Notes under the pieces: model-generated
Told to the model about the DNA's origin: nothing
Seen by the model: the letters and a program-made list of their open reading frames with translations, nothing else
The model's database searches: none
In this document: positions 1 to 60,752 of the stretch, piece after piece
Layout: every line of letters starts with the position of its first letter
Position numbering within the stretch: position 1 is the first letter of the stretch
Source of the DNA: Medicago truncatula
Taxonomy: Eukaryota > Streptophyta > Magnoliopsida > Fabales > Fabaceae
Reading direction: 5' to 3'
Length of the DNA stretch: 64,000 bases
Assembly (NCBI RefSeq): GCF_003473485.1
Contig: NC_053042.1
Coordinates: 14,900,501 to 14,964,500 of the forward strand
Position numbers and translations under genes: made by a program

Positions 1-744
1 ATATAAATTGCTCAAATTTCCAATTGTAGAAGGGATTGCACCGGAGAGATGATTCATAGACAAGTCAAGTTCACCGAGTTGTTTTAGAAATCCAATTTCT
101 CGAGGAATGAAGCCAGAAAGGCTGTTATTTCCAAGATATAGTCTCTGGAGGTTGACTAAATTTCCTATTTCACGAGGAATGTGGCCGAAAAGTTGATTGG
201 AATGTAACTTGAGATTTGTTATTTTGGCCAACTTTCCTAAAGAAATAGAGATAGACCCACTGAGATAATTAAAGCTGAGATCAAGATAGGATAGTTTGGA
301 GAAATTACCAATGGTATTGGGAACGCTACCAGAGAGTTCATTTAGTGACAAATCAAGAGTTTCTAGATTGGACATTACACCAATATGATGTGGAACAACT
401 CCAAAGAATGAGTTGTTTCTTAAAACTAAGCTATGGATTTTTGGAAGTGATGAGATATTGAGATTTTGAAGTGTACCTTTTAGTCCAATACTTGCAAGAT
501 GTATCTTGTAGATAGATTTTGACTTGCCATCACATGTGATTCCCACCCAATTGCAAGGCTTATTACCAATCCATGAAGAGAGCAATGACTTGCTTTGGTT
601 GTCAAAGCTTGCTTTCCATTTCAATAAAGCATTTGCCTCGCTGCTTTGCGTTTTTGACGAAGCATGAGGTGATGTTGCCATTACAAACATACAAAAGAAC
701 CAAAGAAGACATGATAATGGAAACAGCTTCATGCTCTGAAGCAT
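1..744 (-). CDS. MIK2-like LRR receptor kinase X, copy 1 (N-terminal part, cut by window edge)
   Basis: This is the first 248 codons of gene X; the rest lies left of the window. The visible part is identical to the intact copy at 44683-48321. It has a hydrophobic signal peptide starting MLQSMKLFPL (M5 is an alternative start) and an LRR N-terminal cap with paired cysteines around PCNWVGITC. About seven complete plant-type LRRs follow, with an eighth cut by the window edge. The start at 744 lies about 110 bp downstream of a TATAAATA box at 855-862, which fits a short leader. Whether this copy is intact beyond position 1 cannot be judged. The family role is a plasma-membrane receptor kinase with an extracellular ligand-binding LRR domain. 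Confidence 0.9.
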   Translation of the reverse strand, partial: MLQSMKLFPLSCLLWFFCMFVMATSPHASSKTQSSEANALLKWKASFDNQSKSLLSSWIGNKPCNWVGITCDGKSKSIYKIHLASIGLKGTLQNLNISSLPKIHSLVLRNNSFFGVVPHHIGVMSNLETLDLSLNELSGSVPNTIGNFSKLSYLDLSFNYLSGSISISLGKLAKITNLKLHSNQLFGHIPREIGNLVNLQRLYLGNNSLSGFIPREIGFLKQLGELDLSMNHLSGAIPSTIGNLSNLY

Positions 745-854
745 TTTGGAAATTTAATCAATGAAATGAAAGTATGTATAGTTAACTGAAAGTATAATTG
801 AACAAGAGACTCTTTATGATATTGCATGCATTATAATGGGAGATGTAGATGATA

Positions 855-862
855 TATTTATA
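855..862 (-). promoter_or_regulatory. TATA box of X copy 1
   Basis: TATAAATA on the minus strand, 111 bp before the ATG at 744. A start site 25-30 bp downstream would give a leader of roughly 80 bases. The same box precedes copies 2 and 3. Confidence 0.6.
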
Positions 863-1384
863 CACATAATATGGTAATAAACACTTGATATTCCCTTTGC
901 AATAGGGAAGAGAGACACTAGGTTGGATTAACACGGAGTTTAAACTAAGCCACATAAAAAAATCTTCTTATCTTTCATTAGTCTATTCAAGTCTAGAACC
1001 ACAAAATATTAAGTCGTTCATTATTAATCTATTCTCAATATTCCAATTTCTCCACCATTTGTATATTTGTTATTACACTCTTTAGAAAGAAAAAAAAGAT
1101 TATCTGGATATAATAATAATAATAATACGTCTTAATTTGTATGCACTAAGTGACAATATGATAGCTTTAAATTTCAAACATGAGTGAAGAAGATTCAAAC
1201 ATATTCCAATGGAAAATGGCAAATGCCGTTAGAGCACATAGTAGGAGTAGATGGTGATTGCATTAGCGTCCATTTTGGTCTAGAATCATTGATCTATCCT
1301 CCCAAGGAGGGGTAGAGTTGTTGAGGTGGACCATGAGATTTTAAAATATTGATATTTTTTTTTGTTGAATATAGTATTTAATAT

Positions 1385-1794
1385 GCTTAATTGCATGTTT
1401 GATCTCTTATGTTTATTTTAGGTTTTAAGTTGGTCTCTTATGTTTTAAAAGTTTCAAGATGATTGCTTACGTTTTAAAAGTTTTAATTTGGTACAAAATG
1501 TTACTCGCATTGAAATAAGCTAGTCTCTTCTATAACTTAACGTTTAAAGATTCAGGTTGAGTATAAAATTTAATTTATTTAGACAATCACTTTTAAAACA
1601 TTTTTTAAATTTTTTGTTTTATTAGACTCAATTGCGAAATGGACTGACTTATTCCAATGTGAATAACATTTTTGACCAACTTAAAACTTATAAAACACTT
1701 ATAAAACGTAAGGGACCAATTTGAAACTTTTAAAACATAAGGGACCATCTTAAAAATTAAAATAAACATAAGAGATCAAACATGGAATTAAGCC
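1385..1794. mobile_element. Mutator-type MITE, 410 bp (unit copy 1)
   Basis: The ends are inverted repeats of about 75 bp. The left end begins GCTTAATTGCATG and the right end, read inversely, GGCTTAATTCCATG; both continue TTTGATCTCTTATGTTTATT. It is flanked by a perfect 10-bp direct repeat TATTTAATAT (1375-1384 and 1795-1804). Long inverted ends plus a 9-11-bp target duplication are typical of Mutator-like elements. No transposase is encoded, so it is non-autonomous. Confidence 0.85.
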
Positions 1795-2375
1795 TATTTA
1801 ATATCTAAGCATATCATGTTCTATTATTTATATAATTATTTTTAAGTGAACTTAATTTTGGGATCCTATTATTTTTATCAAATTCATGAATTTAATTTTT
1901 ATCCATGATTTATTTTTTATGATTTTCTGGGAAGTTTTAGAGCAATCTGATCAAGTAGTACGGAAACCAGATTTTTTTCTAAAACAGAAAATGAGAGTTA
2001 TGATGATTAATATATATGGTCCTTAAAATGGTTATCCATGTTACGAATAGACTCAGAATTTGTGTTGATACAGTTTGAGTTATATAATCTGGACTAATTT
2101 TCCCCTGAAAAATGGCGTTTAGGGGTATTCGGATTCTATAATCCAAAAAAGTAAGGAACACGCCCTATTTCTTGAGGTTTTTGGATTATAAAATCCGAAC
2201 CGGTGAAAAATTCATTTTTTTAATCCCATAACAAAGAAAAAACTCAATTTAGATTATAAAATTTGAAAATCACATGATCATTTTCATAAAAAATAAAAAA
2301 TGGATGCGCGAAAAATAGGTAGAGAGGAAAAGGCAATAGTCTAACATTTTGTGTGTTGAACACTCCCCCATTGTC

Positions 2376-2471
2376 TTAAATCATAGTGTCCTTCACTACT
2401 CTAGGAAGGATCACTTTTGGAAAATGCTTGCTGCACCAAACTTCTATCCCTTCAGCAATATCCTTTTGTGC
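2376..2471 (-). pseudogene. Coding-like fragment, unidentified
   Basis: A 31-codon open stretch on the minus strand contains the motif IEVWCSKHFPKV and ends in TAA. It has no start codon and is preceded by a stop, so at most it is a remnant. Twelve bases past the stop is a purine run, GGGGGAG, followed by TGTT. That could be a polypurine tract at the edge of an LTR retrotransposon, but no LTR pair was found. Copies exist in the other two units. Confidence 0.25.
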
Positions 2472-3475
2472 TCACTGTGATTCTTGGATTGTTGATATTG
2501 ATTCTTGTTTTACATGTCTAACAATGTAACTGTTCCAGTCAAAGCACGCAGTAGGCACCATCAGATTAATTGTCTCTGATAATTATGATTCGATTTATTA
2601 AAATTTTATAACATTTTTTAATTAAAATAATATAAAAAATAATTTTTTTAATAATTATAAAAAAACAATTACACACGTGACATCCACGTCAGCATTGATT
2701 TGGTCAAAATTGGTCTGGGAGACCAAAACTGCAAAAGGGGGAGTACTTATGGAGCTGAATTGTATTTTATTTTGTTAGGGGGCCAAAACTGCTATTAAGC
2801 CTAAAATTTATAGTAGTAATAAATATGTAATATTACAACTTTAATTTTTTGTTTATATATTATAGTTTATTTTAGTGGTCAATTTAAATTTTTTCTGACT
2901 CGGTTAACCGGTGGAATATGAGTCAACTCTTTGTGAACCGAACAAACCTTCTTCACTTGTTTAATTTATTTGGGTCTTTCCACAATATTTTGGAGTTTCT
3001 TAAAGTCTTGAGAACATCTGCACGTTTTCCCTTATGGCATGATTTCTCCTCTTCTTCATGTCATATTTGTCCTCTTGCAAAACTTAATTAGAAGGTTATC
3101 TTATATCTTACATAATCACTTGTCTAAATCTACCTTTGAAGTATTGCATTGTGATATTGAATGGAGACCTATATGGACATTTCACATGACATGCAATACA
3201 CTATAATTCAAAAGCAACATAATTAAAGCCTTAAAATTACTCAATAAAAAACAGTTTCATAAGAGGTTTACCATTACAAAACAGAAAAATGGTGGTCTTA
3301 TTTTTATAGAAGCTAAAATGAGTACACCAACTCATACAACAAAGCTACACCCAACAGAGCAATACATTGACACTTAACTATAATTTTATTCTCAAGATAA
3401 AACACTTATCATGTAATAGAAAAAGGGATGGAAAATCCTCTAAATCATTAGATAAAACCACCCATTTCCTATATC

Positions 3476-6240
3476 TTAAGATGACTTTGACATTACAATC
3501 TCCTTGCAAACTTGCCCCATTGTAGGGCGATCATGTGTTCTCTCACTTAAGCAATGAATTGCAATCCTTAAAATTGATAACACCTCATTCTTGATATCTT
3601 TAGTAGGATGCGGGAGGCGTTGATCCAACTTATCAATCAATGACATAGCGTCGACTGTTACATATATACCACTTGAATGCAAAGCAGTTGATACAATGTC
3701 TCCAGGATGCTTTCCAAAAAGTATTTCCAAGGTTAATATCCCAAAACTATACACATCACACTTCTCATTTACTTCCATTGTGTATGCAAGTTCTGTAACA
3801 AACACTAAGAGTTATCAATGTGAAAAATAGGGTTCCAAAACAAACAGGATATGTAGACAATTAATACAAAGAAAAGAAATTAACCTGGAGCAGCATATCC
3901 AAAGGTTCCTACAAAACAGGTCCAATTGGAAGAATCGGGATTAAGAAACTTGGCTGTTCCGAAGTCTGAGACATGAGCCACATATTCCAAATCCAAAACA
4001 ACATTCTTGCTGGATATATCACGATGAACAATTGAAGGTGAGCAATTGTGATGCATATAGCATAAAGCATTAGCTACACCTTTAATGGCATTTACCCTCC
4101 TATTCCAATTCAACTTAATTGCTTGGTCATTGTCTTTCAAAATCTTGTCCACACTGCCTTTCTCCAAGAACTCATAAACCAAAAATGAGTGCAATGGATG
4201 TGAACAATACCCGTATAACTTCACAATGTTTCGATGCCGGATTTCAGTTAAAGCTTGGATCTCACTTGCGAAAGCTTTCAGATTGGACGTCTCTCCATTT
4301 TGTAATGAATGGAGTTTCTTCACCGCTACAACTTGTCCTGTGGGGAACTCTGCTTTGTAAACACTTCCGTGTCCTCCTATCCCAATGAGATGCTTGTTGT
4401 CAAACTCTTCAGTTGCTTCAACAATGTTCTCATACACCAATTTTCCATCAAAGCTCCATATTGCAAATAGATTTTCAGTTTGAAATTCTCCTGCAGTCTT
4501 GTATTCTTTTGTGCTTGAAGTTCGACATAAAAGGCATGAGAGGCCATAAAGAAATAATGCTGACAATAGAGTGCCTAGAGTGATGGGTAAAACAACCACC
4601 AAAATGTGTTTAGTCTTATGACTATGAAAGTTACCACCTAATGTTGAGCAAGGCTCTAAGCCAGAGTTACCACACAAGCCTTTGTTATTTCTTAATGCTT
4701 CAATTGGAGCATTTTTGAAGGCTGGAATGTTTGGAATTGGACCTTCAAATTGGTTGTATGATATATCAATAGTTGTTAAGCTTGACATCTCACCATAGGT
4801 CAAGGGAATGGTACCAGAAAAATTATTATGTGAGAGATTCAATGTTTCTAAGCGATTTAACTCTCCAAGCATTGTTGGTATGGTTCCATTCAAAACATTC
4901 TCGCTAAGATCAAGATTTTCAATAATTTTCAATTGTCCAAACTCAGCAGGAATGTCTCCTTCAAACTTATTTTGGCTCAAATTCAAGTCCAATAAATTAG
5001 GTAATCTTCCAAGTTGTTCTGGGATGAAGCCACTGAAATTATTTGTTGCAAGCTCCAAGATAGTTATTTTATGCAATAATGCAATTTGTTCAGGAACTTC
5101 TCCTACAAGATGATTGCTACTTATCAAGAGCTGGATCAATGAGGATAAGTTTCCTAGCTCCTTTGGAATTTCTCCTGTGAGTTGATTCGAGGAAAGGTCC
5201 AGTATAGTTAAATTGGTTGCTTCGGCCAATTCGGGTGGTATGCTTCCTGATATATTATTATTGAAAACTTTAAGGCTTGTGAGATTCTTGCACTTTCCCC
5301 AATTTGGAGAGAGATGACCATAAAAATTATTATCACTCAATTCCATATATTCCAAATTCGGATACACACCAAAGCTATCTGTTATATTTGCAGTCAGTTG
5401 GTTTTGTTGAAGTCTCACTCTCTTAAGGCTTGAGCAATTTTTTAAACTCTTTGGAACTAGACCAATGAACTGGTTATTACTAGTGGAGAAACGAGTTAAC
5501 TTTCCACTAACACATATATTGTGAGGTAAATGACCTGTGAAATTATTATTGCATAACTGGAGAATTTCAAAATTAGTAAGCCTATTCATTTCAGTTGGAA
5601 TATTTCCAGTGAGAGCATTTGAAATAAGAGATAACTTAGTGAGTTTTGTCAAATTTCCAATAGTGGAAGGAATATGTCCGCAGAGTTTATTATCATCAAG
5701 AAGAATAGAAGTCAATTTGATCAAATTACCAATGGATGATGGGATTGGCCCAGAGAGGTTGTTTCCTGACAATTGGATTGTGGTAAGGGAATTGAGCTTT
5801 CCAACTTCACTGGGAATGTTACCAGAGAGTCTATTAAGTGATAAATCAAGAGTTTCCAGATTTGACATCACCCCAATATGGTGAGGAACAACTCCGTAAA
5901 AGGAATTGTTTTTTAAAACTAAGATGCGGATTTTTGGAAGTGATGAGAAATTGAGACTTTGAAGCATACCTTTTAGGCCAATATTGGTGAGATTTAACTT
6001 GCAGATAGATTTTGAGTCATCACAACATGTGATTCCTTCCCAACTACTACAAGGATCGTTACCGATCCATGAAGAGAGCAATGCCCTACTATGGTTGTCA
6101 AAGCTTGCTTTCCACTTCAATAGAACATCTACTTCGCTGCCTTGGATTTTTGTTGTGGCATGAGGTGATGTGGCTATTACAAACACATAGAAGAACAGAC
6201 GAACACACAACAATGGTAAGGGCTTCATCTTCTGAAACAT
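3476..6240 (-). CDS. MIK2-like LRR receptor kinase Y, copy 1
   Basis: Two exons, 6240-3885 and 3792-3476, with a 92-bp intron (GT..ACAG), encode 890 residues. The start is the Met of MFQKMKPL, because a TATA box at 6311-6318 lies inside the longer open frame upstream. Domains: signal peptide (about 1-28), LRR cap, 18 LRRs of 24 residues (about 78-510), paired cysteines near [10 protein letters not shown], transmembrane helix (about 545-572), and a Ser/Thr kinase. The kinase has the G-loop [15 protein letters not shown] lysine K641, HRD 739-741, DFG 759-761, and an APE motif split by the intron. It is an RD kinase with all catalytic residues present. Arabidopsis MIK2 perceives SCOOP peptides; assigning the same ligand here is not justified. 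Confidence 0.93.
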
Positions 6241-6310
6241 TTTGGAAATTTGGACACAAAGAAAGTTACGTATTAGACTAAGAGACTTGTTGTTATAATG
6301 CCATGGGAGA

Positions 6311-6318
6311 TATTTATA
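6311..6318 (-). promoter_or_regulatory. TATA box of Y copy 1
   Basis: TATAAATA on the minus strand, 71 bp before the chosen ATG at 6240. It decides the start: the upstream in-frame Met at 6447 would lie before the promoter. Confidence 0.65.
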
Positions 6319-6798
6319 CACAAAATACAAGTCTTCCATCGGCCTGATTAAAGTCTTCCATGTTGAACTTCCATGAATAAGTGACGTTCCCTTCCCAAAA
6401 AAAAAAATTAATAAGTGACATTGACAATGGTGACTTATAAACTTCAAAAATGGTGACTTTTAATGCCGTAAGAAAGATTGTTTGAATGTGAAGCAAGTTA
6501 GGTGACGGTCTTTGCACTAGAGTCTTGTTTTGGGGTTAGTATCTGTCAAAGGACCGATAAAGACCTGTTTGGTCACCACTCCAGATTATTTTGGTTTGGA
6601 CACACTCATAATAACTCATAAGAGAAAAAGATAAAATCAAATTGAATTAAATAATTAATTGATCTATCAATACTTTCCCGGGATTATCCTAGTGGAAATT
6701 TTATTCCTAGAAAAGTTTGACAAAAGTGTTTGGATATTGATTTGAATTCTGAGGAACTATATTTTAAGGAAATGGTGTAATTATTAAAATACCCCTTG

Positions 6799-7347
6799 AG
6801 TGTGTTTGGATGAGGGAATGTTTTGAGGGAATATAATGTTTTGAGGAAATTCAAATATTTTGGGGTGAATTCCATTGTTTGGATAATAATTTGAAGCATT
6901 TTCAAAATGATGGAAATTTATGAAGTATTTTGTTCAAGTTAAATTTAGAGAATTTCAAATGACACCTAAAAGTTAAGAATTTCAAATTTCTTCATTGTTG
7001 TTATTTTTCATATTTTGCATTTTAGTCCTCAATTTTTCCAAAAATTTCAAATTGACCCCAATAAATTTCCAAAAAATTGCAAATTGGTCCCTCAAAATTT
7101 TCAAAAATTATAATTTGACCCCTTAAGTTTTTGAAATTTGTAAATTGACCCCTAATTTCAATTTTCAAATTTGGCCCTCTAAAAATTAAAATTTATAAAA
7201 GTTGCCCAAAAATGATGACAATAAATTTTTTTATTACTCCATCCAAACAATAATATTTAAGAATGAAAGCAATTTAATTGAATCATTTGAATAACCTAGA
7301 ATTCTAAATTCTTCAAAAAATTTCAAATACTCCATCCAAACACACTC
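6799..7347. mobile_element. MITE-like element with GAGTGTGTTTGGATG ends, 549 bp
   Basis: The 15-bp ends GAGTGTGTTTGGATG are perfect inverted repeats. The interior (about 7046-7195) is a decayed tandem array of units of about 30 bp around the core AAATTGACCCC. I could not find a clear target duplication, so the superfamily is open. Copies lie at 30606-31154 and 54375-54923. Confidence 0.55.
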
Positions 7348-7414
7348 TTATAGTAGGTGGACACAAATGATGGGTGGCCCGATAGCGGAAACCTGATAGC
7401 AGGTGGCCCAGTGG

Positions 7415-7560
7415 ATCTTGGAGAGGATCTGATACCATATTAGAAATTGTGGTTGTGCCTAACACAACCCCACAAAACTGGCTTGTGAGGTGAGGATTGC
7501 CCCCCACTTATTAACACATTGTCAGGCCATCAGCTATCCGATGTGGGACTCTTAAGAAGA
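7415..7560. repeat. Dispersed plant repeat motif, family unknown
   Basis: The stretch runs from CTGATACCATATTAGAAATT to CCGATGTGGGACTCTTAAG. It resembles a repeat I associate with many legume intergenic regions, and is more GC-rich than its surroundings. No coding capacity, and the element boundaries cannot be fixed. It also occurs at about 31222-31367 and 54991-55136. Confidence 0.35.
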
Positions 7561-8534
7561 CCGCGGGAAGACAGAGAAGAAGTATGGAGCTGACAGAACT
7601 AACCCACTCAAAGATTATTCAACGCCAGCAACCAAAGGATCTCAGGTCTTGAAGGATAAGTGGCGAGTTTATTGGGGATTGAACCTTTGAAAAAGCAACA
7701 ATTTGAGTTTTGAGGTTGTGATGATAGCTCAACTTACCTTGTATTTGGTATATTTTTGAGTCACTTTAATAAGCATTTAAAGACAATATAAATGAGTTTT
7801 AGATAAGTTGATCATGGTTTAAGAGAACTTTTGCATTTTTTTTTATTTTAATTCGTTGTAATTTTGTTTCTTCCCTAACCAAACAACTCCATAGGTGTTT
7901 TAACTCATTTTATCAATATGTTATATAAGCCGGAAAACAAGACATCTCATGAAATCTATGGAACACAAAGAATGAAGATCAACGAGGTTTTGGAAGGCTT
8001 TGAAGACAATACAAGTTGGGGGAACAAAGGAAGAAGAAGTTACTGGGTGTTTTTAGTTTTTATTTTTTTAAAATAAAAACAATCCATGTGGCATCAATAT
8101 CATCAAAATAGTCCACATGACAGCGTTGTGTAGACTGCCACGTGAAATTTTGTTAGTAAAATGTTAGTTGACCTAACTTTAGAGACTAAAATCGTTATGA
8201 AAGATTTTGGAGGGATGAAAACATGTGATTTTTTTATAGGAACAAAAACCAAAATTTGCTAACTTTTTATAAACAATAAACTTATTTAACCCTTGAGGAT
8301 TTTTTTTTTCCTCTACTCCCCTCTCTCCAAAGCCCTCCACACCCATCCAAATTCCCAAAGAGACCCTTAAAGCATTTGAGTGAAGGACTGCACTAAATTC
8401 AAAGGCTTTCACTTTTCCTTTTTGTAAAAACAAAATAAAATTCACCTTATTATGGTTCACGTCCACAAGTTTCATACTAAGGAGTACACCATTTCTAGCA
8501 CAAGATATCAAGGATCACTAAACAATTATAGAAC

Positions 8535-8557
8535 GAAATATACAGACTGTATATTTC
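8535..8557. repeat. Perfect 23-nt palindrome in 3' flank of D
   Basis: Two perfect 11-base arms (GAAATATACAG and its complement) surround a single central A, about 150 bp downstream of the D stop codon. It could form a hairpin at the transcript 3' end; function unknown. It is repeated in the other unit copies. Confidence 0.5.
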
Positions 8558-8707
8558 ATTCACCTATAAACACAATTCTATAGTTCAAAGCAAGAATTAT
8601 TTTGATATGCAAAGCTGCATATAAGTTACCTTACCTAACAAATACTTGTGACACGAAATGGATTATTTTCTCTTGGGTGGAGGGAAATATGTTGGAATAA
8701 CATTAAC

Positions 8708-9994
8708 TTACTTTACAAGACCTAAATTGAGGATACCCCATGAAGTATTTGGCCAAGATTTCTCTTTTGCCTTCATTAACAAAACTCTAGTCCATGCAAT
8801 CCAACCTTCCCAAGAAATCCTTTTATCCCAATGACATCCCCATTCAAGCAAAAGAGTCAATCCTCTCTCAGCTTCTTTCTCACCCTCTTCAAATCTACCC
8901 TTTGTCAAATAAACTTGACTCAACACCACATATGGCTCTCCCACAAAAGGGTTTTTCTCAATACTCTTCACCAACAACTCCTCAATCTTCTCCAACCCTT
9001 CTTCACAAATCATAGCTTCCCAATACAAATCCCTTGCAACAATTTGATCCCTTGCATCCAAAACCTTGGTACATTTAGCGAAAACCGGTGGCAAAACCAA
9101 CTCAATATGTTCATCTCTCTCATAATCAACACCATTAACTCCTTTTACTCCCAACATTTTCTTCTTTTCTTCCAAGAATATCTCTTCCTCTCTCAGAATC
9201 AAATTGTAAACAGCTCCCATCCTCGAAATAGAATTCAACCACAAACCCGGCTTACCATTTCCCGGCCAAACAGCACCAAAATTGTTCCCTTTAAACTCAA
9301 GCCTACCATCAAAGTTCTCAAACAACATATCTTGAAAACCAAAAAGCTGATCACAAAAATCAGCCATAGTCATCATAACAAAAACCGCGACAACCCTCCT
9401 CGAAAGCTTCACATCTTCACCTGTACGAATATGCTTCACTTTTATCCCATCAGCAGGAACAAGACCTTGCAATTTCTTCCTCCAACTTTCATCCTTATTA
9501 AATATCCCCTTCTCCTTTGCATTCCTCAAAGACAATTCTGATTTTTCAAGATCATGACAAAGCTCCTTATCAGAGTAGTGAAAAAGTAGATCATCATGAA
9601 TAAGAGATTGTCTAGGAACAACACAAAACAAATGAATCAGACGCTCAGCTTCTACGCCAACATGTCCACGAACAACTTCGCGAGAGGTTGAAGGATCAAA
9701 GATAGCAAGATTAACATAGGAATTGGAGTATGCTGAGTGGAATAGGCCACAAAGAGACACGGAGTATGGAGATTTCCAAAGATGGAGAATGCGGAAAATA
9801 TCAATAAGGTGTTCAAGGAAAGTTCCATGTTTGTGCCAACATTCAGATGCACCAACAGAACGGAGGATTGTGATTAGGGAAGGGAGTTTGGGATCGATGG
9901 AAATGAGCTCGTTACGAAGGAAGGGTTTAGCTGAGGTTAAGAGGGTTTCGAGGTATTCACTTGAACTTGATGAATAAGAAGAAGAATTTGACAT
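8708..9994 (-). CDS. Gene D, HD-like/TPR-like plant protein, copy 1
   Basis: Intronless, 428 residues. A Ser-rich N-terminus is followed by a conserved block (about 25-170) rich in His: H54, H56 and H62 in CWHKHGTFLEHLIDIF, H86 in GLFHSAYSN, and HDD at 133-135. This spacing resembles a diverged HD-type metal-binding fold; I associate it with the plant domain called DUF6817, from memory. The C-terminal third (about 318-420) is helical with a TPR-like stretch (PYVVLSQVYLTKGRFEEGEKEAERGL). No signal peptide or membrane segment, so probably soluble. Function unknown. A weak TTAAATA lies at 10041-10047. It is identical to copy 3. Confidence 0.88.
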   Translation of the reverse strand: MSNSSSYSSSSSEYLETLLTSAKPFLRNELISIDPKLPSLITILRSVGASECWHKHGTFLEHLIDIFRILHLWKSPYSVSLCGLFHSAYSNSYVNLAIFDPSTSREVVRGHVGVEAERLIHLFCVVPRQSLIHDDLLFHYSDKELCHDLEKSELSLRNAKEKGIFNKDESWRKKLQGLVPADGIKVKHIRTGEDVKLSRRVVAVFVMMTMADFCDQLFGFQDMLFENFDGRLEFKGNNFGAVWPGNGKPGLWLNSISRMGAVYNLILREEEIFLEEKKKMLGVKGVNGVDYERDEHIELVLPPVFAKCTKVLDARDQIVARDLYWEAMICEEGLEKIEELLVKSIEKNPFVGEPYVVLSQVYLTKGRFEEGEKEAERGLTLLLEWGCHWDKRISWEGWIAWTRVLLMKAKEKSWPNTSWGILNLGLVK

Positions 9995-12046: not shown

Positions 12047-12099
12047 AGTTGCAAATATACAAGTTCGTCAACAAAAAAAAAAAGAGTTGCAAATATACA
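12047..12099. repeat. Short A-rich scar between 15-bp direct repeats
   Basis: AGTTGCAAATATACA occurs twice (12047-12061 and 12085-12099). The 23-base insert begins AGTTCGTCAAC and ends in an A run. The GTCAA-plus-oligo(A) ending resembles the 3' end of the retroposon at 12408-12875 (GTCAAAAAAA). Repeated in the other units. Confidence 0.5.
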
Positions 12100-49370: not shown

Positions 49371-51051
49371 TATTTAATATCTAAGCATATCATGTTCTAT
49401 TATTTATATAATTATTTTTAAGTGAACTTAATTTTGGGATCCTATTATTTTTATCAAATTCATGAATTTAATTTTTATCCATGATTTATTTTTATGATTT
49501 TCTGGGAAGTTTTAGAGCAATCTGATCAAGTAGTACGGAAACCAGATTTTTTTCTAAAACAGAAAATGAGAGTTATGATGATTAATATATATGGTCCTTA
49601 AAATGGTTATCCATGTTACGAATAGACTCAGAATTTGTGTTGATACAGTTTGAGTTATATAATCTGGACTAATTTTCCCCTGAAAAATGGCGTTTAGGGG
49701 TATTCGGATTCTATAATCCAAAAAAGTAAGGAACACGCCCTATTTCTTGAGGTTTTTGGATTATAAAATCCGAACCGGTGAAAAATTCATTTTTTTAATC
49801 CCATAACAAAGAAAAAACTCAATTTAGATTATAAAATTTGAAAATCACATGATCATTTTCATAAAAAATAAAAAATGGATGCGCGAAAAATAGGTAGAGA
49901 GGAAAAGGCAATAGTCTAACATTTTGTGTGTTGAACACTCCCCCATTGTCTTAAATCATAGTGTCCTTCACTACTCTAGGAAGGATCACTTTTGGAAAAT
50001 GCTTGCTGCACCAAACTTCTATCCCTTCAGCAATATCCTTTTGTGCTCACTGTGATTCTTGGATTGTTGATATTGATTCTTGTTTTACATGTCTAACAAT
50101 GTAACTGTTCCAGTCAAAGCACGCAGTAGGCACCATCAGATTAATTGTCTCTGATAATTATGATTCGATTTATTAAAATTTTATAACATTTTTAATTAAA
50201 ATAATATAAAAAAATAATTTTTTTAATAATTATAAAAAAAACAATTACACACGTGACATCCACGTCAGCATTGATTTGGTCAAAATTGGTCTGGGAGACC
50301 AAAACTGCAAAAGGGGGAGTACTTATGGAGCTGAATTGTATTTTATTTTGTTAGGGGGCCAAAACTGCTATTAAGCCTAAAATTTATAGTAGTAATAAAT
50401 ATGTAATATTACAACTTTAATTTTTTGTTTATATATTATAGTTTATTTTAGTGGTCAATTTAAATTTTTTCTGACTCGGTTAACCGGTGGAATATGAGTC
50501 AACTCTTTGTGAACCGAACAAACCTTCTTCACTTGTTTAATTTATTTGGGTCTTTCCACAATATTTTGGAGTTTCTTAAAGTCTTGAGAACATCTGCACG
50601 TTTTCCCTTATGGCATGATTTCTCCTCTTCTTCATGTCATATTTGTCCTCTTGCAAAACTTAATTAGAAGGTTATCTTATATCTTACATAATCACTTGTC
50701 TAAATCTACCTTTGAAGTATTGCATTGTGATATTGAATGGAGACCTATATGGACATTTCACATGACATGCAATACACTATAATTCAAAAGCAACATAATT
50801 AAAGCCTTAAAATTACTCAATAAAAAACAGTTTCATAAGAGGTTTACCATTACAAAACAGAAAAATGGTGGTCTTATTTTTATAGAAGCTAAAATGAGTA
50901 CACCAACTCATACAACAAAGCTACACCCAACAGAGCAATACATTGACACTTAACTATAATTTTATTCTCAAGATAAAACACTTATCATGTAATAGAAAAA
51001 GGGATGGAAAATCCTCTAAATCATTAGATAAAACCACCCATTTCCTATATC

Positions 51052-53816
51052 TTAAGATGACTTTGACATTACAATCTCCTTGCAAACTTGCCCCATTGTA
51101 GGGCGATCATGTGTTCTCTCACTTAAGCAATGAATTGCAATCCTTAAAATTGATAACACCTCATTCTTGATATCTTTAGTAGGATGCGGGAGGCGTTGAT
51201 CCAACTTATCAATCAATGACATAGCGTCGACTGTTACATATATACCACTTGAATGCAAAGCAGTTGATACAATGTCTCCAGGATGCTTTCCAAAAAGTAT
51301 TTCCAAGGTTAATATCCCAAAACTATACACATCACACTTCTCATTTACTTCCATTGTGTATGCAAGTTCTGTAACAAACACTAAGAGTTATCAATGTGAA
51401 AAATAGGGTTCCAAAACAAACAGGATATGTAGACAATTAATACAAAGAAAAGAAATTAACCTGGAGCAGCATATCCAAAGGTTCCTACAAAACAGGTCCA
51501 ATTGGAAGAATCGGGATTAAGAAACTTGGCTGTTCCGAAGTCTGAGACATGAGCCACATATTCCAAATCCAAAACAACATTCTTGCTGGATATATCACGA
51601 TGAACAATTGAAGGTGAGCAATTGTGATGCATATAGCATAAAGCATTAGCTACACCTTTAATGGCATTTACCCTCCTATTCCAATTCAACTTAATTGCTT
51701 GGTCATTGTCTTTCAAAATCTTGTCCACACTGCCTTTCTCCAAGAACTCATAAACCAAAAATGAGTGCAATGGATGTGAACAATACCCGTATAACTTCAC
51801 AATGTTTCGATGCCGGATTTCAGTTAAAGCTTGGATCTCACTTGCGAAAGCTTTCAGATTGGACGTCTCTCCATTTTGTAATGAATGGAGTTTCTTCACC
51901 GCTACAACTTGTCCTGTGGGGAACTCTGCTTTGTAAACACTTCCGTGTCCTCCTATCCCAATGAGATGCTTGTTGTCAAACTCTTCAGTTGCTTCAACAA
52001 TGTTCTCATACACCAATTTTCCATCAAAGCTCCATATTGCAAATAGATTTTCAGTTTGAAATTCTCCTGCAGTCTTGTATTCTTTTGTGCTTGAAGTTCG
52101 ACATAAAAGGCATGAGAGGCCATAAAGAAATAATGCTGACAATAGAGTGCCTAGAGTGATGGGTAAAACAACCACCAAAATGTGTTTAGTCTTATGACTA
52201 TGAAAGTTACCACCTAATGTTGAGCAAGGCTCTAAGCCAGAGTTACCACACAAGCCTTTGTTATTTCTTAATGCTTCAATTGGAGCATTTTTGAAGGCTG
52301 GAATGTTTGGAATTGGACCTTCAAATTGGTTGTATGATATATCAATAGTTGTTAAGCTTGACATCTCACCATAGGTCAAGGGAATGGTACCAGAAAAATT
52401 ATTATGTGAGAGATTCAATGTTTCTAAGCGATTTAACTCTCCAAGCATTGTTGGTATGGTTCCATTCAAAACATTCTCGCTAAGATCAAGATTTTCAATA
52501 ATTTTCAATTGTCCAAACTCAGCAGGAATGTCTCCTTCAAACTTATTTTGGCTCAAATTCAAGTCCAATAAATTAGGTAATCTTCCAAGTTGTTCTGGGA
52601 TGAAGCCACTGAAATTATTTGTTGCAAGCTCCAAGATAGTTATTTTATGCAATAATGCAATTTGTTCAGGAACTTCTCCTACAAGATGATTGCTACTTAT
52701 CAAGAGCTGGATCAATGAGGATAAGTTTCCTAGCTCCTTTGGAATTTCTCCTGTGAGTTGATTCGAGGAAAGGTCCAGTATAGTTAAATTGGTTGCTTCG
52801 GCCAATTCGGGTGGTATGCTTCCTGATATATTATTATTGAAAACTTTAAGGCTTGTGAGATTCTTGCACTTTCCCCAATTTGGAGAGAGATGACCATAAA
52901 AATTATTATCACTCAATTCCATATATTCCAAATTCGGATACACACCAAAGCTATCTGTTATATTTGCAGTCAGTTGGTTTTGTTGAAGTCTCACTCTCTT
53001 AAGGCTTGAGCAATTTTTTAAACTCTTTGGAACTAGACCAATGAACTGGTTATTACTAGTGGAGAAACGAGTTAACTTTCCACTAACACATATATTGTGA
53101 GGTAAATGACCTGTGAAATTATTATTGCATAACTGGAGAATTTCAAAATTAGTAAGCCTATTCATTTCAGTTGGAATATTTCCAGTGAGAGCATTTGAAA
53201 TAAGAGATAACTTAGTGAGTTTTGTCAAATTTCCAATAGTGGAAGGAATATGTCCGCAGAGTTTATTATCATCAAGAAGAATAGAAGTCAATTTGATCAA
53301 ATTACCAATGGATGATGGGATTGGCCCAGAGAGGTTGTTTCCTGACAATTGGATTGTGGTAAGGGAATTGAGCTTTCCAACTTCACTGGGAATGTTACCA
53401 GAGAGTCTATTAAGTGATAAATCAAGAGTTTCCAGATTTGACATCACCCCAATATGGTGAGGAACAACTCCGTAAAAGGAATTGTTTTTTAAAACTAAGA
53501 TGCGGATTTTTGGAAGTGATGAGAAATTGAGACTTTGAAGCATACCTTTTAGGCCAATATTGGTGAGATTTAACTTGCAGATAGATTTTGAGTCATCACA
53601 ACATGTGATTCCTTCCCAACTACTACAAGGATCGTTACCGATCCATGAAGAGAGCAATGCCCTACTATGGTTGTCAAAGCTTGCTTTCCACTTCAATAGA
53701 ACATCTACTTCGCTGCCTTGGATTTTTGTTGTGGCATGAGGTGATGTGGCTATTACAAACACATAGAAGAACAGACGAACACACAACAATGGTAAGGGCT
53801 TCATCTTCTGAAACAT
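51052..53816 (-). CDS. MIK2-like LRR receptor kinase Y, copy 3
   Basis: Intact third copy: exon 1 53816-51461, exon 2 51368-51052, predicted 890 residues and identical to Y copies 1 and 2. Same domain order: signal peptide, 18 LRRs, transmembrane helix, RD kinase. Start supported by the TATA box at 53887-53894. Confidence 0.92.
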
Positions 53817-56283
53817 TTTGGAAATTTGGACACAAAGAAAGTTACGTATTAGACTAAGAGACTTGTTGTTATAATGCCATGGGAGATATTTATACACAAA
53901 ATACAAGTCTTCCATCGGCCTGATTAAAGTCTTCCATGTTGAACTTCCATGAATAAGTGACGTTCCCTTCCCAAAAAAAAAAATTAATAAGTGACATTGA
54001 CAATGGTGACTTATAAACTTCAAAAATGGTGACTTTTAATGCCGTAAGAAAGATTGTTTGAATGTGAAGCAAGTTAGGTGACGGTCTTTGCACTAGAGTC
54101 TTGTTTTGGGGTTAGTATCTGTCAAAGGACCGATAAAGACCTGTTTGGTCACCACTCCAGATTATTTTGGTTTGGACACACTCATAATAACTCATAAGAG
54201 AAAAAGATAAAATCAAATTGAATTAAATAATTAATTGATCTATCAATACTTTCCCGGGATTATCCTAGTGGAAATTTTATTCCTAGAAAAGTTTGACAAA
54301 AGTGTTTGGATATTGATTTGAATTCTGAGGAACTATATTTTAAGGAAATGGTGTAATTATTAAAATACCCCTTGAGTGTGTTTGGATGAGGGAATGTTTT
54401 GAGGGAATATAATGTTTTGAGGAAATTCAAATATTTTGGGGTGAATTCCATTGTTTGGATAATAATTTGAAGCATTTTCAAAATGATGGAAATTTATGAA
54501 GTATTTTGTTCAAGTTAAATTTAGAGAATTTCAAATGACACCTAAAAGTTAAGAATTTCAAATTTCTTCATTGTTGTTATTTTTCATATTTTGCATTTTA
54601 GTCCTCAATTTTTCCAAAAATTTCAAATTGACCCCAATAAATTTCCAAAAAATTGCAAATTGGTCCCTCAAAATTTTCAAAAATTATAATTTGACCCCTT
54701 AAGTTTTTGAAATTTGTAAATTGACCCCTAATTTCAATTTTCAAATTTGGCCCTCTAAAAATTAAAATTTATAAAAGTTGCCCAAAAATGATGACAATAA
54801 ATTTTTTTATTACTCCATCCAAACAATAATATTTAAGAATGAAAGCAATTTAATTGAATCATTTGAATAACCTAGAATTCTAAATTCTTCAAAAAATTTC
54901 AAATACTCCATCCAAACACACTCTTATAGTAGGTGGACACAAATGATGGGTGGCCCGATAGCGGAAACCTGATAGCAGGTGGCCCAGTGGATCTTGGAGA
55001 GGATCTGATACCATATTAGAAATTGTGGTTGTGCCTAACACAACCCCACAAAACTGGCTTGTGAGGTGAGGATTGCCCCCCACTTATTAACACATTGTCA
55101 GGCCATCAGCTATCCGATGTGGGACTCTTAAGAAGACCGCGGGAAGACAGAGAAGAAGTATGGAGCTGACAGAACTAACCCACTCAAAGATTATTCAACG
55201 CCAGCAACCAAAGGATCTCAGGTCTTGAAGGATAAGTGGCGAGTTTATTGGGGATTGAACCTTTGAAAAAGCAACAATTTGAGTTTTGAGGTTGTGATGA
55301 TAGCTCAACTTACCTTGTATTTGGTATATTTTTGAGTCACTTTAATAAGCATTTAAAGACAATATAAATGAGTTTTAGATAAGTTGATCATGGTTTAAGA
55401 GAACTTTTGCATTTTTTTTTATTTTAATTCGTTGTAATTTTGTTTCTTCCCTAACCAAACAACTCCATAGGTGTTTTAACTCATTTTATCAATATGTTAT
55501 ATAAGCCGGAAAACAAGACATCTCATGAAATCTATGGAACACAAAGAATGAAGATCAACGAGGTTTTGGAAGGCTTTGAAGACAATACAAGTTGGGGGAA
55601 CAAAGGAAGAAGAAGTTACTGGGTGTTTTTAGTTTTTATTTTTTTAAAATAAAAACAATCCATGTGGCATCAATATCATCAAAATAGTCCACATGACAGC
55701 GTTGTGTAGACTGCCACGTGAAATTTTGTTAGTAAAATGTTAGTTGACCTAACTTTAGAGACTAAAATCGTTATGAAAGATTTTGGAGGGATGAAAACAT
55801 GTGATTTTTTTATAGGAACAAAAACCAAAATTTGCTAACTTTTTATAAACAATAAACTTATTTAACCCTTGAGGATTTTTTTTTTCCTCTACTCCCCTCT
55901 CTCCAAAGCCCTCCACACCCATCCAAATTCCCAAAGAGACCCTTAAAGCATTTGAGTGAAGGACTGCACTAAATTCAAAGGCTTTCACTTTTCCTTTTTG
56001 TAAAAACAAAATAAAATTCACCTTATTATGGTTCACGTCCACAAGTTTCATACTAAGGAGTACACCATTTCTAGCACAAGATATCAAGGATCACTAAACA
56101 ATTATAGAACGAAATATACAGACTGTATATTTCATTCACCTATAAACACAATTCTATAGTTCAAAGCAAGAATTATTTTGATATGCAAAGCTGCATATAA
56201 GTTACCTTACCTAACAAATACTTGTGACACGAAATGGATTATTTTCTCTTGGGTGGAGGGAAATATGTTGGAATAACATTAAC
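53817..56283. other. Intergenic region Y3-D3
   Basis: Counterpart of 6241-8707, with the MITE-like element at 54375-54923, the dispersed repeat near 54991-55136 and the 3' flank of D. No gene seen. Confidence 0.55.
53887..53894 (-). promoter_or_regulatory. TATA box of Y copy 3
   Basis: TATAAATA 71 bp before the ATG at 53816. Confidence 0.65.
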
Positions 56284-57570
56284 TTACTTTACAAGACCTA
56301 AATTGAGGATACCCCATGAAGTATTTGGCCAAGATTTCTCTTTTGCCTTCATTAACAAAACTCTAGTCCATGCAATCCAACCTTCCCAAGAAATCCTTTT
56401 ATCCCAATGACATCCCCATTCAAGCAAAAGAGTCAATCCTCTCTCAGCTTCTTTCTCACCCTCTTCAAATCTACCCTTTGTCAAATAAACTTGACTCAAC
56501 ACCACATATGGCTCTCCCACAAAAGGGTTTTTCTCAATACTCTTCACCAACAACTCCTCAATCTTCTCCAACCCTTCTTCACAAATCATAGCTTCCCAAT
56601 ACAAATCCCTTGCAACAATTTGATCCCTTGCATCCAAAACCTTGGTACATTTAGCGAAAACCGGTGGCAAAACCAACTCAATATGTTCATCTCTCTCATA
56701 ATCAACACCATTAACTCCTTTTACTCCCAACATTTTCTTCTTTTCTTCCAAGAATATCTCTTCCTCTCTCAGAATCAAATTGTAAACAGCTCCCATCCTC
56801 GAAATAGAATTCAACCACAAACCCGGCTTACCATTTCCCGGCCAAACAGCACCAAAATTGTTCCCTTTAAACTCAAGCCTACCATCAAAGTTCTCAAACA
56901 ACATATCTTGAAAACCAAAAAGCTGATCACAAAAATCAGCCATAGTCATCATAACAAAAACCGCGACAACCCTCCTCGAAAGCTTCACATCTTCACCTGT
57001 ACGAATATGCTTCACTTTTATCCCATCAGCAGGAACAAGACCTTGCAATTTCTTCCTCCAACTTTCATCCTTATTAAATATCCCCTTCTCCTTTGCATTC
57101 CTCAAAGACAATTCTGATTTTTCAAGATCATGACAAAGCTCCTTATCAGAGTAGTGAAAAAGTAGATCATCATGAATAAGAGATTGTCTAGGAACAACAC
57201 AAAACAAATGAATCAGACGCTCAGCTTCTACGCCAACATGTCCACGAACAACTTCGCGAGAGGTTGAAGGATCAAAGATAGCAAGATTAACATAGGAATT
57301 GGAGTATGCTGAGTGGAATAGGCCACAAAGAGACACGGAGTATGGAGATTTCCAAAGATGGAGAATGCGGAAAATATCAATAAGGTGTTCAAGGAAAGTT
57401 CCATGTTTGTGCCAACATTCAGATGCACCAACAGAACGGAGGATTGTGATTAGGGAAGGGAGTTTGGGATCGATGGAAATGAGCTCGTTACGAAGGAAGG
57501 GTTTAGCTGAGGTTAAGAGGGTTTCGAGGTATTCACTTGAACTTGATGAATAAGAAGAAGAATTTGACAT
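56284..57570 (-). CDS. Gene D, HD-like/TPR-like plant protein, copy 3 (intact)
   Basis: Intronless, 428 residues, identical to copy 1. It retains the GGG run that is short in copy 2, so the frame is open from MSNSSS to the stop. His-rich N-terminal block (H54, H56, H62, H86, HDD 133-135) and TPR-like C-terminal third. No membrane segment. It is the last intact gene of the array, about 3 kb from the right breakpoint. Function unknown; the domain assignment is from remembered family features, not a search. Confidence 0.88.
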   Translation of the reverse strand: MSNSSSYSSSSSEYLETLLTSAKPFLRNELISIDPKLPSLITILRSVGASECWHKHGTFLEHLIDIFRILHLWKSPYSVSLCGLFHSAYSNSYVNLAIFDPSTSREVVRGHVGVEAERLIHLFCVVPRQSLIHDDLLFHYSDKELCHDLEKSELSLRNAKEKGIFNKDESWRKKLQGLVPADGIKVKHIRTGEDVKLSRRVVAVFVMMTMADFCDQLFGFQDMLFENFDGRLEFKGNNFGAVWPGNGKPGLWLNSISRMGAVYNLILREEEIFLEEKKKMLGVKGVNGVDYERDEHIELVLPPVFAKCTKVLDARDQIVARDLYWEAMICEEGLEKIEELLVKSIEKNPFVGEPYVVLSQVYLTKGRFEEGEKEAERGLTLLLEWGCHWDKRISWEGWIAWTRVLLMKAKEKSWPNTSWGILNLGLVK

Positions 57571-58311
57571 GGTTATTAATTCGTTAACGAGTTGGTGAAT
57601 GATTTTGGAAGACTACTATTTAACGAGAAACAACGAGGATTGGTCTAGCAGAAGGAGTTAGACTCTTAAAACATGGCGATCTAAGGATTAAAACATGGTT
57701 GAAGTGTTCAAATTTGAGACGTCTAAATAGAATTACCAGGAACCTATGAGAAACAAACAAAAGAAAATTATGTGAAACAAAATGTGGTTGGTGCCGTGTT
57801 GTTGTTGTTGTGTTGTTGAGAAACAATCCAAGTGGGTAATGATGAGGCACTGAAAATGAAAGTGATAGAGACAAGTGATTCATAATATAGAGAGATTGAG
57901 ACGTTGCCTAGATTCTTATGCAGTCACATTCAGTGTGTTTGTTTGTTAAACTGATAAGATCAAACAATTTATCTGGCTACGGATAGTTTCTTAACGCTGA
58001 TTTTGTGCAGTCACATTCAGTGTGTTTGTTTGTTTGTTAAACTGCATTGTATTTTTATGACTTTTTCTTTATGTCATGACTCAATTTATTTTGTTTTGAT
58101 TTTAGTTTTCTTTACTGTTGGTACTAAAGAGAGCCTAGAAGGACAGTAAAACTAGGTAAATGTAACACAACCTCGACTGTAACGTAATCAAGTCAAGGTT
58201 GTGAAGTTCAAAGAGAGTCTCCGTAGAAAAGAAAGAAGATCCAATATCCGACTTAAAGACCGATTGATTCGAAGGGTTCAATTTTATTGTCCATTTGCGG
58301 AGCTCTATTTA

Positions 58312-59339
58312 GGATCCGTTTGGTTCGAGAGTTTTGGAGGGGAGGGGAGGGAAGGGGAGGGGAGATTTTTAATTTGAAGTGTTTGGTTCAATTTTTAGAA
58401 GGGAAGGGAAGGGGAGGGGAGGGGAGCAAATCTCTTTAAAATTTTATTGCATTGCCATAATTATCCTTAAATTAATTTCAAATCTCAATATTAACCTTGT
58501 AACAACTTTTATTATTATTAGATTATATTATTTTTGTAACAATCTTATTATTATTATTAGGTTATCTTATTCTTGTAACAATTATTATTATTATTATTTT
58601 GTTATATTTTCCTTGTAACAATTTTTATTATTATATAATCTACCACTCTTATTTGTTAGACATACTTAGAATGATTCTTCAATGTCCACCCAAAGCACGC
58701 AAAGCAGTCATAATGGAAACTGTCTTTGGTTCTTCTGATTAATCATACTATGATGGTGTTATGATGTTTATGAGTTTTTTTAGGGAGACTGTTTTGTTAT
58801 GATGTTTATCATTATTTTTTTTAAGGAGAAATAGTTAACAGTAGTCATAGTCACTTTCATGTGTCTTATTTGTTCATATGCAACAAATTTCATTTATCTT
58901 ACAATTGTTAATTAATAAGCACTATCCATGATTTTGAAAATTCTTATGTCATATATTTAAGAGCTATGCTATTTTTTACGAAAGTAATTGGAAAAAAATG
59001 CAAGGATTACAAAGAATTGCTCTTATAAAAAAAATATTACAAAGAATTGCTCCGATAAAAAAAGCCAAAAAAAAAAACAATATGATGCTTGGAGCAAAAT
59101 ACATGAGCCAGTTTAAGATAAAATAGCGGCTTAGATGTGTGCTTGTCTTTGTCAGTTTCTGAAATCGTAAAAACAAACAGTTTCTTTTATTTAATTAAGT
59201 TTAAGGGTAAAACGGTAAAATACTGTTAAAATCTCTCCCCTCCCCTTGTGAACCAAACACACTTTTAATTAAAAATATCTCTCCTCCACTCCCCTCCGTA
59301 AAAATCCCTCCCCTCCTAATTCTCGAACCAAACGGACCC
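58312..59339. mobile_element. Tourist-like MITE, 1028 bp (unit copy 3)
   Basis: Third copy, same length and TTA flanks. Confidence 0.8.
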
Positions 59340-59985
59340 TTAAAATCAAGGTAAAGCTTTCTTCCAAATAATCCATTAAAATTGGCATCGAAGAAATCAA
59401 ACGCTTTAAGAAAAACACACTCCAAACTTTCAAACGAACACCATTAGAAAAACTCATAACATTTAACACAAAAGTTACCATCACACCTCATAAGCATGAT
59501 GTTTCCATGGCCGAGAGATTCACGATCAGCAAGGCCTTACTTTAGGCCTTCTAAAAAAAAAAAAATTATCTAAAGCATTTTACACCTCTTTAAAATACAA
59601 TAGTTCACTATTATTAAAAACTAAGTTGCAAATATACAAGTTCGTCAACAAAAAAAAAAAAGAGTTGCAAATATACACAAGAAGATTTGTAACATCTTGC
59701 ATTTTAATCCCAGATATTACTTAAATTTTATTTATTTATTTTTTACAAAATATGACTATTTTTTTTATATGAAAACAAATTTACTACATGGTAATTTATT
59801 TTTCACTAGAAATTTTATTTTGTTAAATAACCATTTAAATTGTAAATGAAAATCATCTAACTTACATTTTAGTTAAAATAATTGATTTTCTTTTACAACA
59901 TAATTTTATAAAAAAAATATATTCATTGTTGCGGAAGTATAAAATTTAGGCAAAATTATTGAAATTCAAATTAATTAAAACTTAA

Positions 59986-60453
59986 ATATATATTTATTTT
60001 ACTCTACAAGCCGGCCCTAGTTTTCTCTCTCTAGGTTTTCTCTTCTAGATTTTCCATCGAGCGGTGGTTTTGTGTCAATTCTTGACCTGAAATCACTCAT
60101 CTTCATCTTTTTCTCTATATTTCAATCTAAATAAGTGATTTTCACATAGATCTAGGTTTTTTCTTTGTGATTTCATCATCTAAGTGTGGTGGTTTGTTGT
60201 TCGTCGTCTTGTGCGACGCTGTTTGATTCCCGTCTTCTTGCGGTGTTCATCTGATTTATTTTGAAGATCGATTATTCAATCAAAGATTTGGGCGTCAACG
60301 TTGCAGATCCGGAGGCCATGAGTATTCCGATCATTTTAATTTTATCATATATTTTTGTAGGCATTATGCCGTTATACGCTATTAACTTAGCGGTATTGAA
60401 TGATGTAATCTCTCTATTTGAACGAATGAATATCATTTTGTTTTTGTCAAAAA
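59986..60453 (+). mobile_element. Retroposon I, 468 bp (unit copy 3)
   Basis: Same insertion with target duplications at 59969-59985 and 60454-60470. It ends about 100 bp before the right edge of the array. Confidence 0.75.
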
Positions 60454-60752
60454 AATTAATTAAAACTTAACAACATTTTGATTAGTTTCTAGCGGAGGAA
60501 AACTCACTTCCACGTTTCTAGTTTGGAACAAAGGATAATGCTAAGCACAACGACAAGAATCATCCCGAATTCTTCAAGAATGCAGTTTATTTGCTAAATT
60601 AGAGAAACTGTTTTGCTATTCCTCTTTTTATTCTATACGTTTGTGGTTCGTGAATATCCACAAAAAATAATTTCGCTGTATATAGCAGTGCCCTGCAACA
60701 AATTAACCTAAGAGCAATGCTTAATGTCACCGATATATTATCGCAGAAAACT

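What the first reader, a model, noticed from the sequence alone, without database searches (positions are those of the whole stretch)
1..60556. Near-perfect 23.8-kb tandem array carrying two receptor kinases and gene D
The whole window up to 60556 is one unit repeated head to tail, with two full copies and most of the gene content of a third. All three Y copies encode the same 890 residues. Such an array would multiply receptor dosage in one step. The left end lies outside the window, so the total copy number is unknown.
Basis: seen in the sequence. Interest (0 to 1): 0.75.

Follow-up and report, generated by a model that had tools for sequence, protein, structure and literature searches.

The report
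Young triplicated receptor-kinase block in plant
A 24-kilobase piece of a plant chromosome carrying two immune-type receptor genes and one further gene lies three times in a row with no base substitutions between copies, and the seam between copies looks like faulty repair in a DNA hairpin; this is a very young example of a familiar kind of gene multiplication.

Summary
The array is really in the assembly. The window is C1:14,900,501-14,964,500 of a 429.9-Mb plant assembly (probably Medicago truncatula, inferred). Extending left shows exactly three complete units, so the copy number in this assembly is three. Inside the 23.8-kb unit there is no substitution between copies, only 22 private one-base homopolymer indels and two microsatellite length differences. 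The one-base indels look like long-read consensus errors; three of them, all in the middle copy, break X (twice) and D. X and Y are MIK2-like LRR receptor kinases; D (DUF6817) was found nowhere else in the genome. The left breakpoint lies in the stem of a dispersed foldback transposon. The seam shows ACAA microhomology plus a duplicated 10-mer, occurs exactly twice in the genome, and is absent from copy A and from 10 of 10 family members read. Best reading: one end-joining duplication, then unequal exchange to three. Raw reads are still needed; extra dosage is untested.

The parts
1..12978 (.). Copy A, right part (the whole copy runs from about window -10843 to 12978)
12979..36784 (.). Copy B, complete unit, 23,806 bp
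36785..60556 (.). Copy C, complete unit, 23,772 bp; a different right flank follows
12970..13000 (+). Seam A/B: unit end joined to the interior of a foldback transposon arm, with ACAA microhomology and the 10-mer AAAAATCAAA twice
   Evidence: the seam 31-mer occurs exactly twice in the genome
36776..36806 (+). Seam B/C, same sequence as seam A/B
12979..14660 (.). Truncated foldback transposon at the start of copy B (right end approximate); the full element spans the start of copy A (about -11360 to -9167)
   Evidence: 36 dispersed matches to its part of the query (988-2001 of 2001) at 88-95%; approximate element ends
36785..38463 (.). Truncated foldback transposon at the start of copy C (right end approximate)
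3476..6240 (-). Y copy A, two exons 3885-6240 and 3476-3792, 890 aa LRR receptor kinase
27283..30047 (-). Y copy B, two exons 27692-30047 and 27283-27599, 890 aa, identical
51052..53816 (-). Y copy C, two exons 51461-53816 and 51052-51368, 890 aa, identical
   Evidence: Pfam
20915..24551 (-). X copy B, frame broken by one-base deletions at 23345 and 22926 (first frame ends after 408 aa); possibly consensus errors
44683..48321 (-). X copy C, exons 45165-48321 and 44683-44999, 1157 aa LRR receptor kinase; X copy A (start 744, mostly left of the window) is identical
   Evidence: Pfam
8708..9994 (-). D copy A, 428 aa, DUF6817 (PF20680)
32515..33717 (-). D copy B, frame broken by a one-base deletion at 33684
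56284..57570 (-). D copy C, 428 aa, DUF6817
   Evidence: (E 8.2e-29)
58309..59343 (.). DNA transposon with inverted ends, at the same place in all three copies (also about 10733-11766 and 34539-35572), so older than the duplication
16888..16938 (.). AT microsatellite, 51 bases here (69 in copy A, 17 in copy C)

Best explanation
A real and very recent tandem triplication of a 23.8-kb block holding two old-paralogue MIK2-like LRR receptor kinases (X, Y) and a DUF6817 gene (D). Step 1 (inferred from the seam): a break or stalled fork in the arm of a foldback transposon, which can form a long hairpin, was joined to a point 23.8 kb to the right by microhomology end joining (polymerase-theta type) or microhomology template switching; the polymerase copied a 10-mer twice and left a scar. 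Step 2 (inferred from both seams being identical): the two-copy state went to three by unequal exchange between the identical copies. Step 3 (inferred): the copies are too young to have collected substitutions, and most of the visible differences are sequencing consensus errors. Consequence (not tested): more Y, and probably more X and D, transcript.
For: Three complete units between different flanks, no N in the 114 kb read. Seam reads CGAC+AAAAATCAAA+AAAAATCAAACCCC, whereas copy A reads CACAAAAATCAAACCCC; 10 of 10 foldback-family members read at this place lack the extra 10-mer (a first pattern scan had caught 6 of the 10). The seam 31-mer occurs exactly twice in 429.9 Mb, the pattern read backwards 0 times. 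Left breakpoint base -10841 is paired with -10533 in a predicted hairpin of -250.5 kcal/mol per 1001 bases, against mean -91.1, sd 10.1, lowest -106.0 for 20 random stretches of the same region. No substitution inside the unit. Three different AT-repeat lengths (69/51/17) argue for three separate molecules. A transposon close to its family (near-full-length relative at 94%, many partial matches at 96-99%) is shared by all three copies, so the duplication is younger still. D is found 3 times in the genome, all in the array. X and Y differ by dS 0.51, so the array is on a different time scale. PMC13015775 (passages) describes mismatch-containing microhomology (here ACAA[G/A]AATCA) in polymerase-theta joining, and PMC5730883 (passages) templated inserts.
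Against: No raw reads, read depth or second assembly could be examined, so copy number three could be an assembler's guess. The unit is longer than many older long reads. The AT-repeat lengths could in part be consensus error. Two of the three coding indels in copy B sit in runs of only two to three bases, less typical of consensus error, so some may be true mutations. The seam signature fits theta joining and replication template switching equally well. The hairpin control is of 20 stretches only, and the hairpin is a prediction for a single strand. Polymerase theta was not tested. PMC5730883 attributes tandem duplications at its cut sites to classical end joining, which would be another route.
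Confidence: 0.7

Rival explanations
1. Assembly error: a single or double copy was walked several times, and the copies differ only because each was polished with randomly placed reads.
For: No substitutions inside the unit; all 22 one-base differences are homopolymer indels, 20 of 22 in runs of five or more bases (7.5e-23 if placed at random over the unit), 20 of 22 deletions; the middle copy, farthest from unique flank, has the most (A 5, B 10, C 7) and all three coding frameshifts.
Against: The seam is a specific join with microhomology and a duplicated 10-mer that is in neither the right edge, nor copy A, nor 10 of 10 family members read, so reads with that join must exist; it is the same at both junctions, unlike overlapping contig ends. 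The AT repeat has three lengths. The right flank has no significant match to the unit start.
Confidence: 0.18
2. Alternative (reversed-ends) transposition of the foldback element made the duplication directly.
For: A transposon sits at the duplication boundary; maize Ac makes tandem direct duplications this way (PMC3744419, abstract and passages).
Against: The breakpoint lies about 519 bp inside the element, in the stem of its arm, not at its terminus (exact element ends unresolved); the seam has microhomology and a templated repeat. PMC3744419 reports 8-bp target-site duplications at such junctions.
Confidence: 0.05
3. Homologous exchange between two dispersed repeats flanking the block made the first duplication.
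For: The left boundary is in a repeat with at least 36 other copies in the genome; the neighbourhood is an old cluster of 82-89% similar receptor kinases.
Against: The right flank from 60557 has no significant match to the unit (best E 0.083), and the seam is a 4-bp microhomology (10 bp with one mismatch), not a long homology.
Confidence: 0.04
4. An older array kept identical by gene conversion or repeated unequal exchange.
For: Identity alone cannot separate youth from homogenisation (inference; the identity itself is).
Against: The identical part ends sharply at the unit edges, and flanking and internal older paralogues (X versus Y, X versus the gene at -15.4 kb) are not homogenised.
Confidence: 0.07

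Closest known systems
Soybean Rhg1 tandem copy-number locus (PMC6712407 passages; PMC4455779 passages)
   Same: A block of about 31 kb with four unlike genes repeated head to tail, up to 10 copies, with one repeat-junction sequence shared between haplotypes; here 23.8 kb, three genes, three copies, one shared seam.
   Different: Genes are receptor kinases and a DUF6817 gene, not the Rhg1 genes; copy-number variation between accessions and phenotype were not testable here.
MIK2, Arabidopsis SCOOP receptor (PDB 8web and relatives)
   Same: Best solved-structure match of both ectodomains (X 2.2e-163, Y 2.1e-168); X and Y have LRR and kinase domains.
   Different: SCOOP pocket residues D246, N268, S292, H294, H316 (PMC11331138 passages) read H,T,I,H,S in X and C,V,D,S,Q in Y in these alignments.
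LRR-RLK tandem clusters of Medicago truncatula (PMC7555646 passages)
   Different: It counts single genes, mainly on the older v4.0 assembly; the passages I saw do not mention an identical multi-gene triplication (supplementary tables not read).
Maize Ac reversed-ends tandem duplications (PMC3744419 passages)
   Same: Tandem direct duplication with a transposon at the boundary.
   Different: There the transposon end and a target-site duplication mark the junction; here the break is inside the element.

Membership tests
Young multi-gene tandem copy-number locus (Rhg1 type) | Several unlike genes in one unit repeated head to tail at near identity | tested here: met
   Three units, no substitution inside the unit, genes X, Y, D in each, X and D broken as printed in the middle one
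Young multi-gene tandem copy-number locus (Rhg1 type) | One common junction sequence | tested here: met
   Seam 31-mer exactly twice in the genome
Young multi-gene tandem copy-number locus (Rhg1 type) | Copy number varies among accessions | not testable with these tools
   Only the window's own plant genome could be searched
Young multi-gene tandem copy-number locus (Rhg1 type) | Dosage changes a trait | not testable with these tools
   No expression or phenotype data
MIK2-like LRR receptor kinases | LRRNT, LRR array and kinase with intact VAVKK, HRD, DFG, APE motifs | tested here: met
   Pfam; motifs; membrane span seen by eye only
MIK2 proper (SCOOP receptor) | Conserved S5/S7 pocket D246, N268, S292, H294, H316 | tested here: not met
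   1 of 5 in X, 0 of 5 in Y; LRR register is uncertain
DUF6817 (PF20680) | Pfam match over the curated cut-off | tested here: met
   100 bits against cut-off 25.2
Polymerase-theta or template-switch duplication | Microhomology with templated insertion at the junction | tested here: met
   ACAA plus duplicated AAAAATCAAA
Polymerase-theta or template-switch duplication | Dependence on polymerase theta | not testable with these tools
   Needs mutants
Reversed-ends transposition duplication | Transposon terminus at the junction | tested here: not met
   Break about 519 bp inside the element; a target-site duplication was not looked for systematically
Self-incompatibility locus with MIK2 genes (hazelnut, chicory) | Neighbouring PIX7 genes or linkage to an S-locus | tested here: inconclusive
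   No PIX7-like hit among the 4 and 7 proteins scanned, but flanks were not fully annotated; chromosome number does not fit hazelnut (recalled)

The most novel reading that the evidence does not exclude
A foldback-transposon hairpin acted as a fragile site and set off, within the last few thousand generations, a Rhg1-like multi-gene amplification that triples a pair of immune-type receptor kinases together with the only DUF6817 gene found in the genome; the three-gene block may be under selection for dosage and vary in copy number among accessions.
Probability: 0.15. Interest if true: 0.6.

Novelty: new member of a known kind. Interest (0 to 1): 0.38.

Why it matters
Gene families of plant receptors grow by tandem duplication, but most cases are old and their joins are erased. 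Here the join is intact, can be read to the base, and points to a hairpin-forming transposon as the starting break. If long reads confirm it, it is a clean case of how a multi-gene copy-number locus begins, with a unique marker (the seam) that can be typed by PCR in any accession. If reads refute it, it is a warning that reference gene counts in such clusters can be inflated.

Tried and rejected
Self-incompatibility locus: literature on MIK2 genes at hazelnut and chicory S-loci (PMC8921776, PMC11152071, PMC10272723; passages) raised the idea.

A test by nodule peptide family PF07127 did not complete.

Homologues of D in bacteria: none found in genome contigs (11 pattern matches, none confirmed). 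PDB: one match of residues 334-389 to a synthetic PPR protein, E 4e-4. NCBIfam hits of X and Y are all far below their cut-offs and come from shared LRR and kinase folds; rejected. Rfam: 0 matches in the window at gathering thresholds. Target-site duplication and exact ends of the foldback element: not resolved. Structure of D: not obtained. Genome-wide count of Y-like genes: not obtained.

Literature: DUF6817 0 papers; medtr1g039 4 papers, listing and abstract starts only, none on these genes by title.

Full report
OBSERVATION. The window is 64,000 bases without N, 32.3% G+C. Self-alignment gives one 23.8-kb unit head to tail, with junctions at 12978|12979 and 36784|36785 and the last unit ending at 60556. 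Y was rebuilt as a two-exon gene with a 92-base intron (splice sites predicted by me, no RNA evidence) and gives the same 890 residues in 3 of 3 copies.

LEFT END. One genome search placed the window at C1:14,900,501-14,964,500 of a genome of 429,922,655 bases in 42 contigs and showed a further unit start at C1:14,889,660. I fetched 30 kb to the left and 20 kb to the right and found no N. The array starts at about window coordinate -10843 and ends at 60556: three complete units (A, B, C), 71.4 kb in all. The flanks differ from each other and from the unit's own continuation; the left flank holds the outer arm of a foldback transposon and two older receptor-kinase paralogues. The D region as DNA matches over its full 2,501 bases only at the three array places; the other listed matches cover its last part (from about base 2304 on), a dispersed transposon (40 of 296 candidates scored). 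PF20680 rings three times in the genome, again only there, with 0 of 14 control genomes positive. So nothing seen suggests a further copy elsewhere in the assembly.

DIFFERENCES BETWEEN COPIES. A three-way alignment of the whole unit has 27 events. Three of them, one printed as a substitution, are the ragged left edge of copy A, where A continues into its own flank; they are dropped from the counts below. The other 24 are 22 one-base indels, one TAT-repeat change and one AT-repeat change; no substitution. Each one-base indel is private to one copy: A 5, B 10, C 7; 20 are deletions and 2 insertions; 20 of 22 lie in runs of five or more bases, which hold 6.0% of the unit. This is the error profile of long-read consensus (established knowledge), not of mutation, where substitutions would be expected to be common. 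Three of the 22 fall in coding sequence, all in B: 23345 and 22926 break X (the first frame ends after 408 codons) and 33684 breaks D. Two of these three are in runs of only two to three bases, so a true mutation is not excluded. X of copy A equals X of copy C (1157 aa), and D of A and C are both 428 aa. The AT repeat is 69, 51 and 17 bases and the TAT repeat 54, 54 and 51, which argues for three separate stretches of DNA rather than one stretch printed three times, though repeats of this kind are also error-prone.

AGE. With 0 substitutions in three lineages of 23.8 kb, the 95% upper bound is 4.2e-5 per site per lineage; that is about 2,800 years at the 1.5e-8 per year used in PMC7555646 (passages) or about 6,000 generations at a recalled rate of 7e-9. 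This holds only if the copies are real and not homogenised. X and Y, by contrast, differ by dS 0.51 and dN 0.149 over 886 codons, about 17 million years at the same rate. A transposon at 58309-59343 with inverted ends sits at the same place in all three copies; one relative matches nearly its whole length at 94%, and many match parts of it, mostly at 96-99%. It was there before the duplication.

THE SEAM. In copy A the unit start reads CACAAAAATCAAACCCC and lies inside a complete element of about 2.2 kb (about -11360 to -9167, ends approximate) with at least 36 dispersed relatives at 88-95% over the stretch queried (a lower bound, 40 of 2,295 candidates were scored). The element is a foldback: its left arm (-11183 to -10825) is the inverted copy of -10549 to -10195 at 86%. 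In copies B and C the element is cut short and the unit end is joined on: CGAC + AAAAATCAAA + AAAAATCAAACCCC. The two sides share ACAA, extendable to ACAA[G/A]AATCA with one mismatch, and the 10-mer AAAAATCAAA is copied twice. Of 10 relatives examined, 10 read through this place without the extra 10-mer (the stricter pattern had caught 6). The 31-base seam occurs exactly twice in the genome and the pattern read backwards not at all. Predicted as a single strand, the 1001 bases round the left breakpoint fold at -250.5 kcal/mol, against -91.1 on average and -106.0 at best in 20 random stretches of the same region; the right breakpoint region gives -97.4, that is, nothing unusual. The left breakpoint base is paired in the stem.

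HOW IT MOST LIKELY AROSE. Shown: the structure, the scar, its two identical copies, its absence from copy A. Inferred: a break or stall in the hairpin arm, joined by microhomology with a templated repeat, as described for polymerase-theta joining (PMC5730883 and PMC13015775, passages) or for template switching; then unequal exchange between two identical 23.8-kb copies, which copies the same scar. Against theta as the only candidate, PMC5730883 assigns tandem duplications at its cut sites to classical end joining. Reversed-ends transposition (PMC3744419, passages) is disfavoured since the break is inside the element; exchange between flanking repeats is disfavoured since the right flank has no significant match to the unit (best E 0.083).

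GENES. X and Y have LRRNT, LRR and kinase domains and intact kinase motifs. Their best solved relatives are MIK2 ectodomains. The SCOOP pocket residues named in PMC11331138 (passages) are mostly not kept: 1 of 5 in X and 0 of 5 in Y, with the caution that LRR register in such alignments is uncertain. That paper states that MIK2 homologues were not found outside the Brassicales. So these are MIK2-like receptors with unknown ligand, not MIK2. D has the DUF6817 domain (E 8.2e-29) and a weak helical-repeat match at its C-terminus (E 4e-4); no function is known to me. A short D-like relic lies at 42232-42336 beyond the end of X. Two older receptor-kinase genes lie left of the array at about -25.5 to -21.8 kb and -15.4 to -11.8 kb, so the array sits in an old receptor cluster.

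VERDICT. Finding confirmed and sharpened: three copies, one shared scar, hairpin transposon at the break. It is a fresh member of a known kind (multi-gene tandem copy-number locus, such as soybean Rhg1; PMC4455779 and PMC6712407, passages). The main open point is whether raw reads bear out the copy number; the dosage claim is untested.

Noticed in passing
46907-47460 (copy C; also 23138-23690): 144-base repeat, 3.8 copies, 86% matches, inside X exon 1: two LRRs duplicated repeatedly within the gene, which helps to make X longer than Y.
   Followed up: partly
42232-42336: Relic of gene D (D residues 23-54, 66% identity over 35 columns) beyond the end of X, hinting at an older D-receptor pair.
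   Followed up: partly
62958-63071: Weak GRF zinc-finger match (E 0.0021, below Pfam cut-off) in a 188-aa frame in the right flank.
   Followed up: no
61960-62222: 131-base tandem repeat, two copies, in the right flank.
   Followed up: no
L012, window-scale coordinates 67901-68797: 183-base tandem repeat right of the window, 94-96% between copies.
   Followed up: no
1372-1487 and 1690-1807 (and in each copy): Further inverted repeat of about 115 bases, possibly a second small foldback element within the unit.
   Followed up: no
38758-38987 and 60183-60399: 233-base direct match at 70% near the start and the end of the unit; not at the breakpoints; identity unknown.
   Followed up: no
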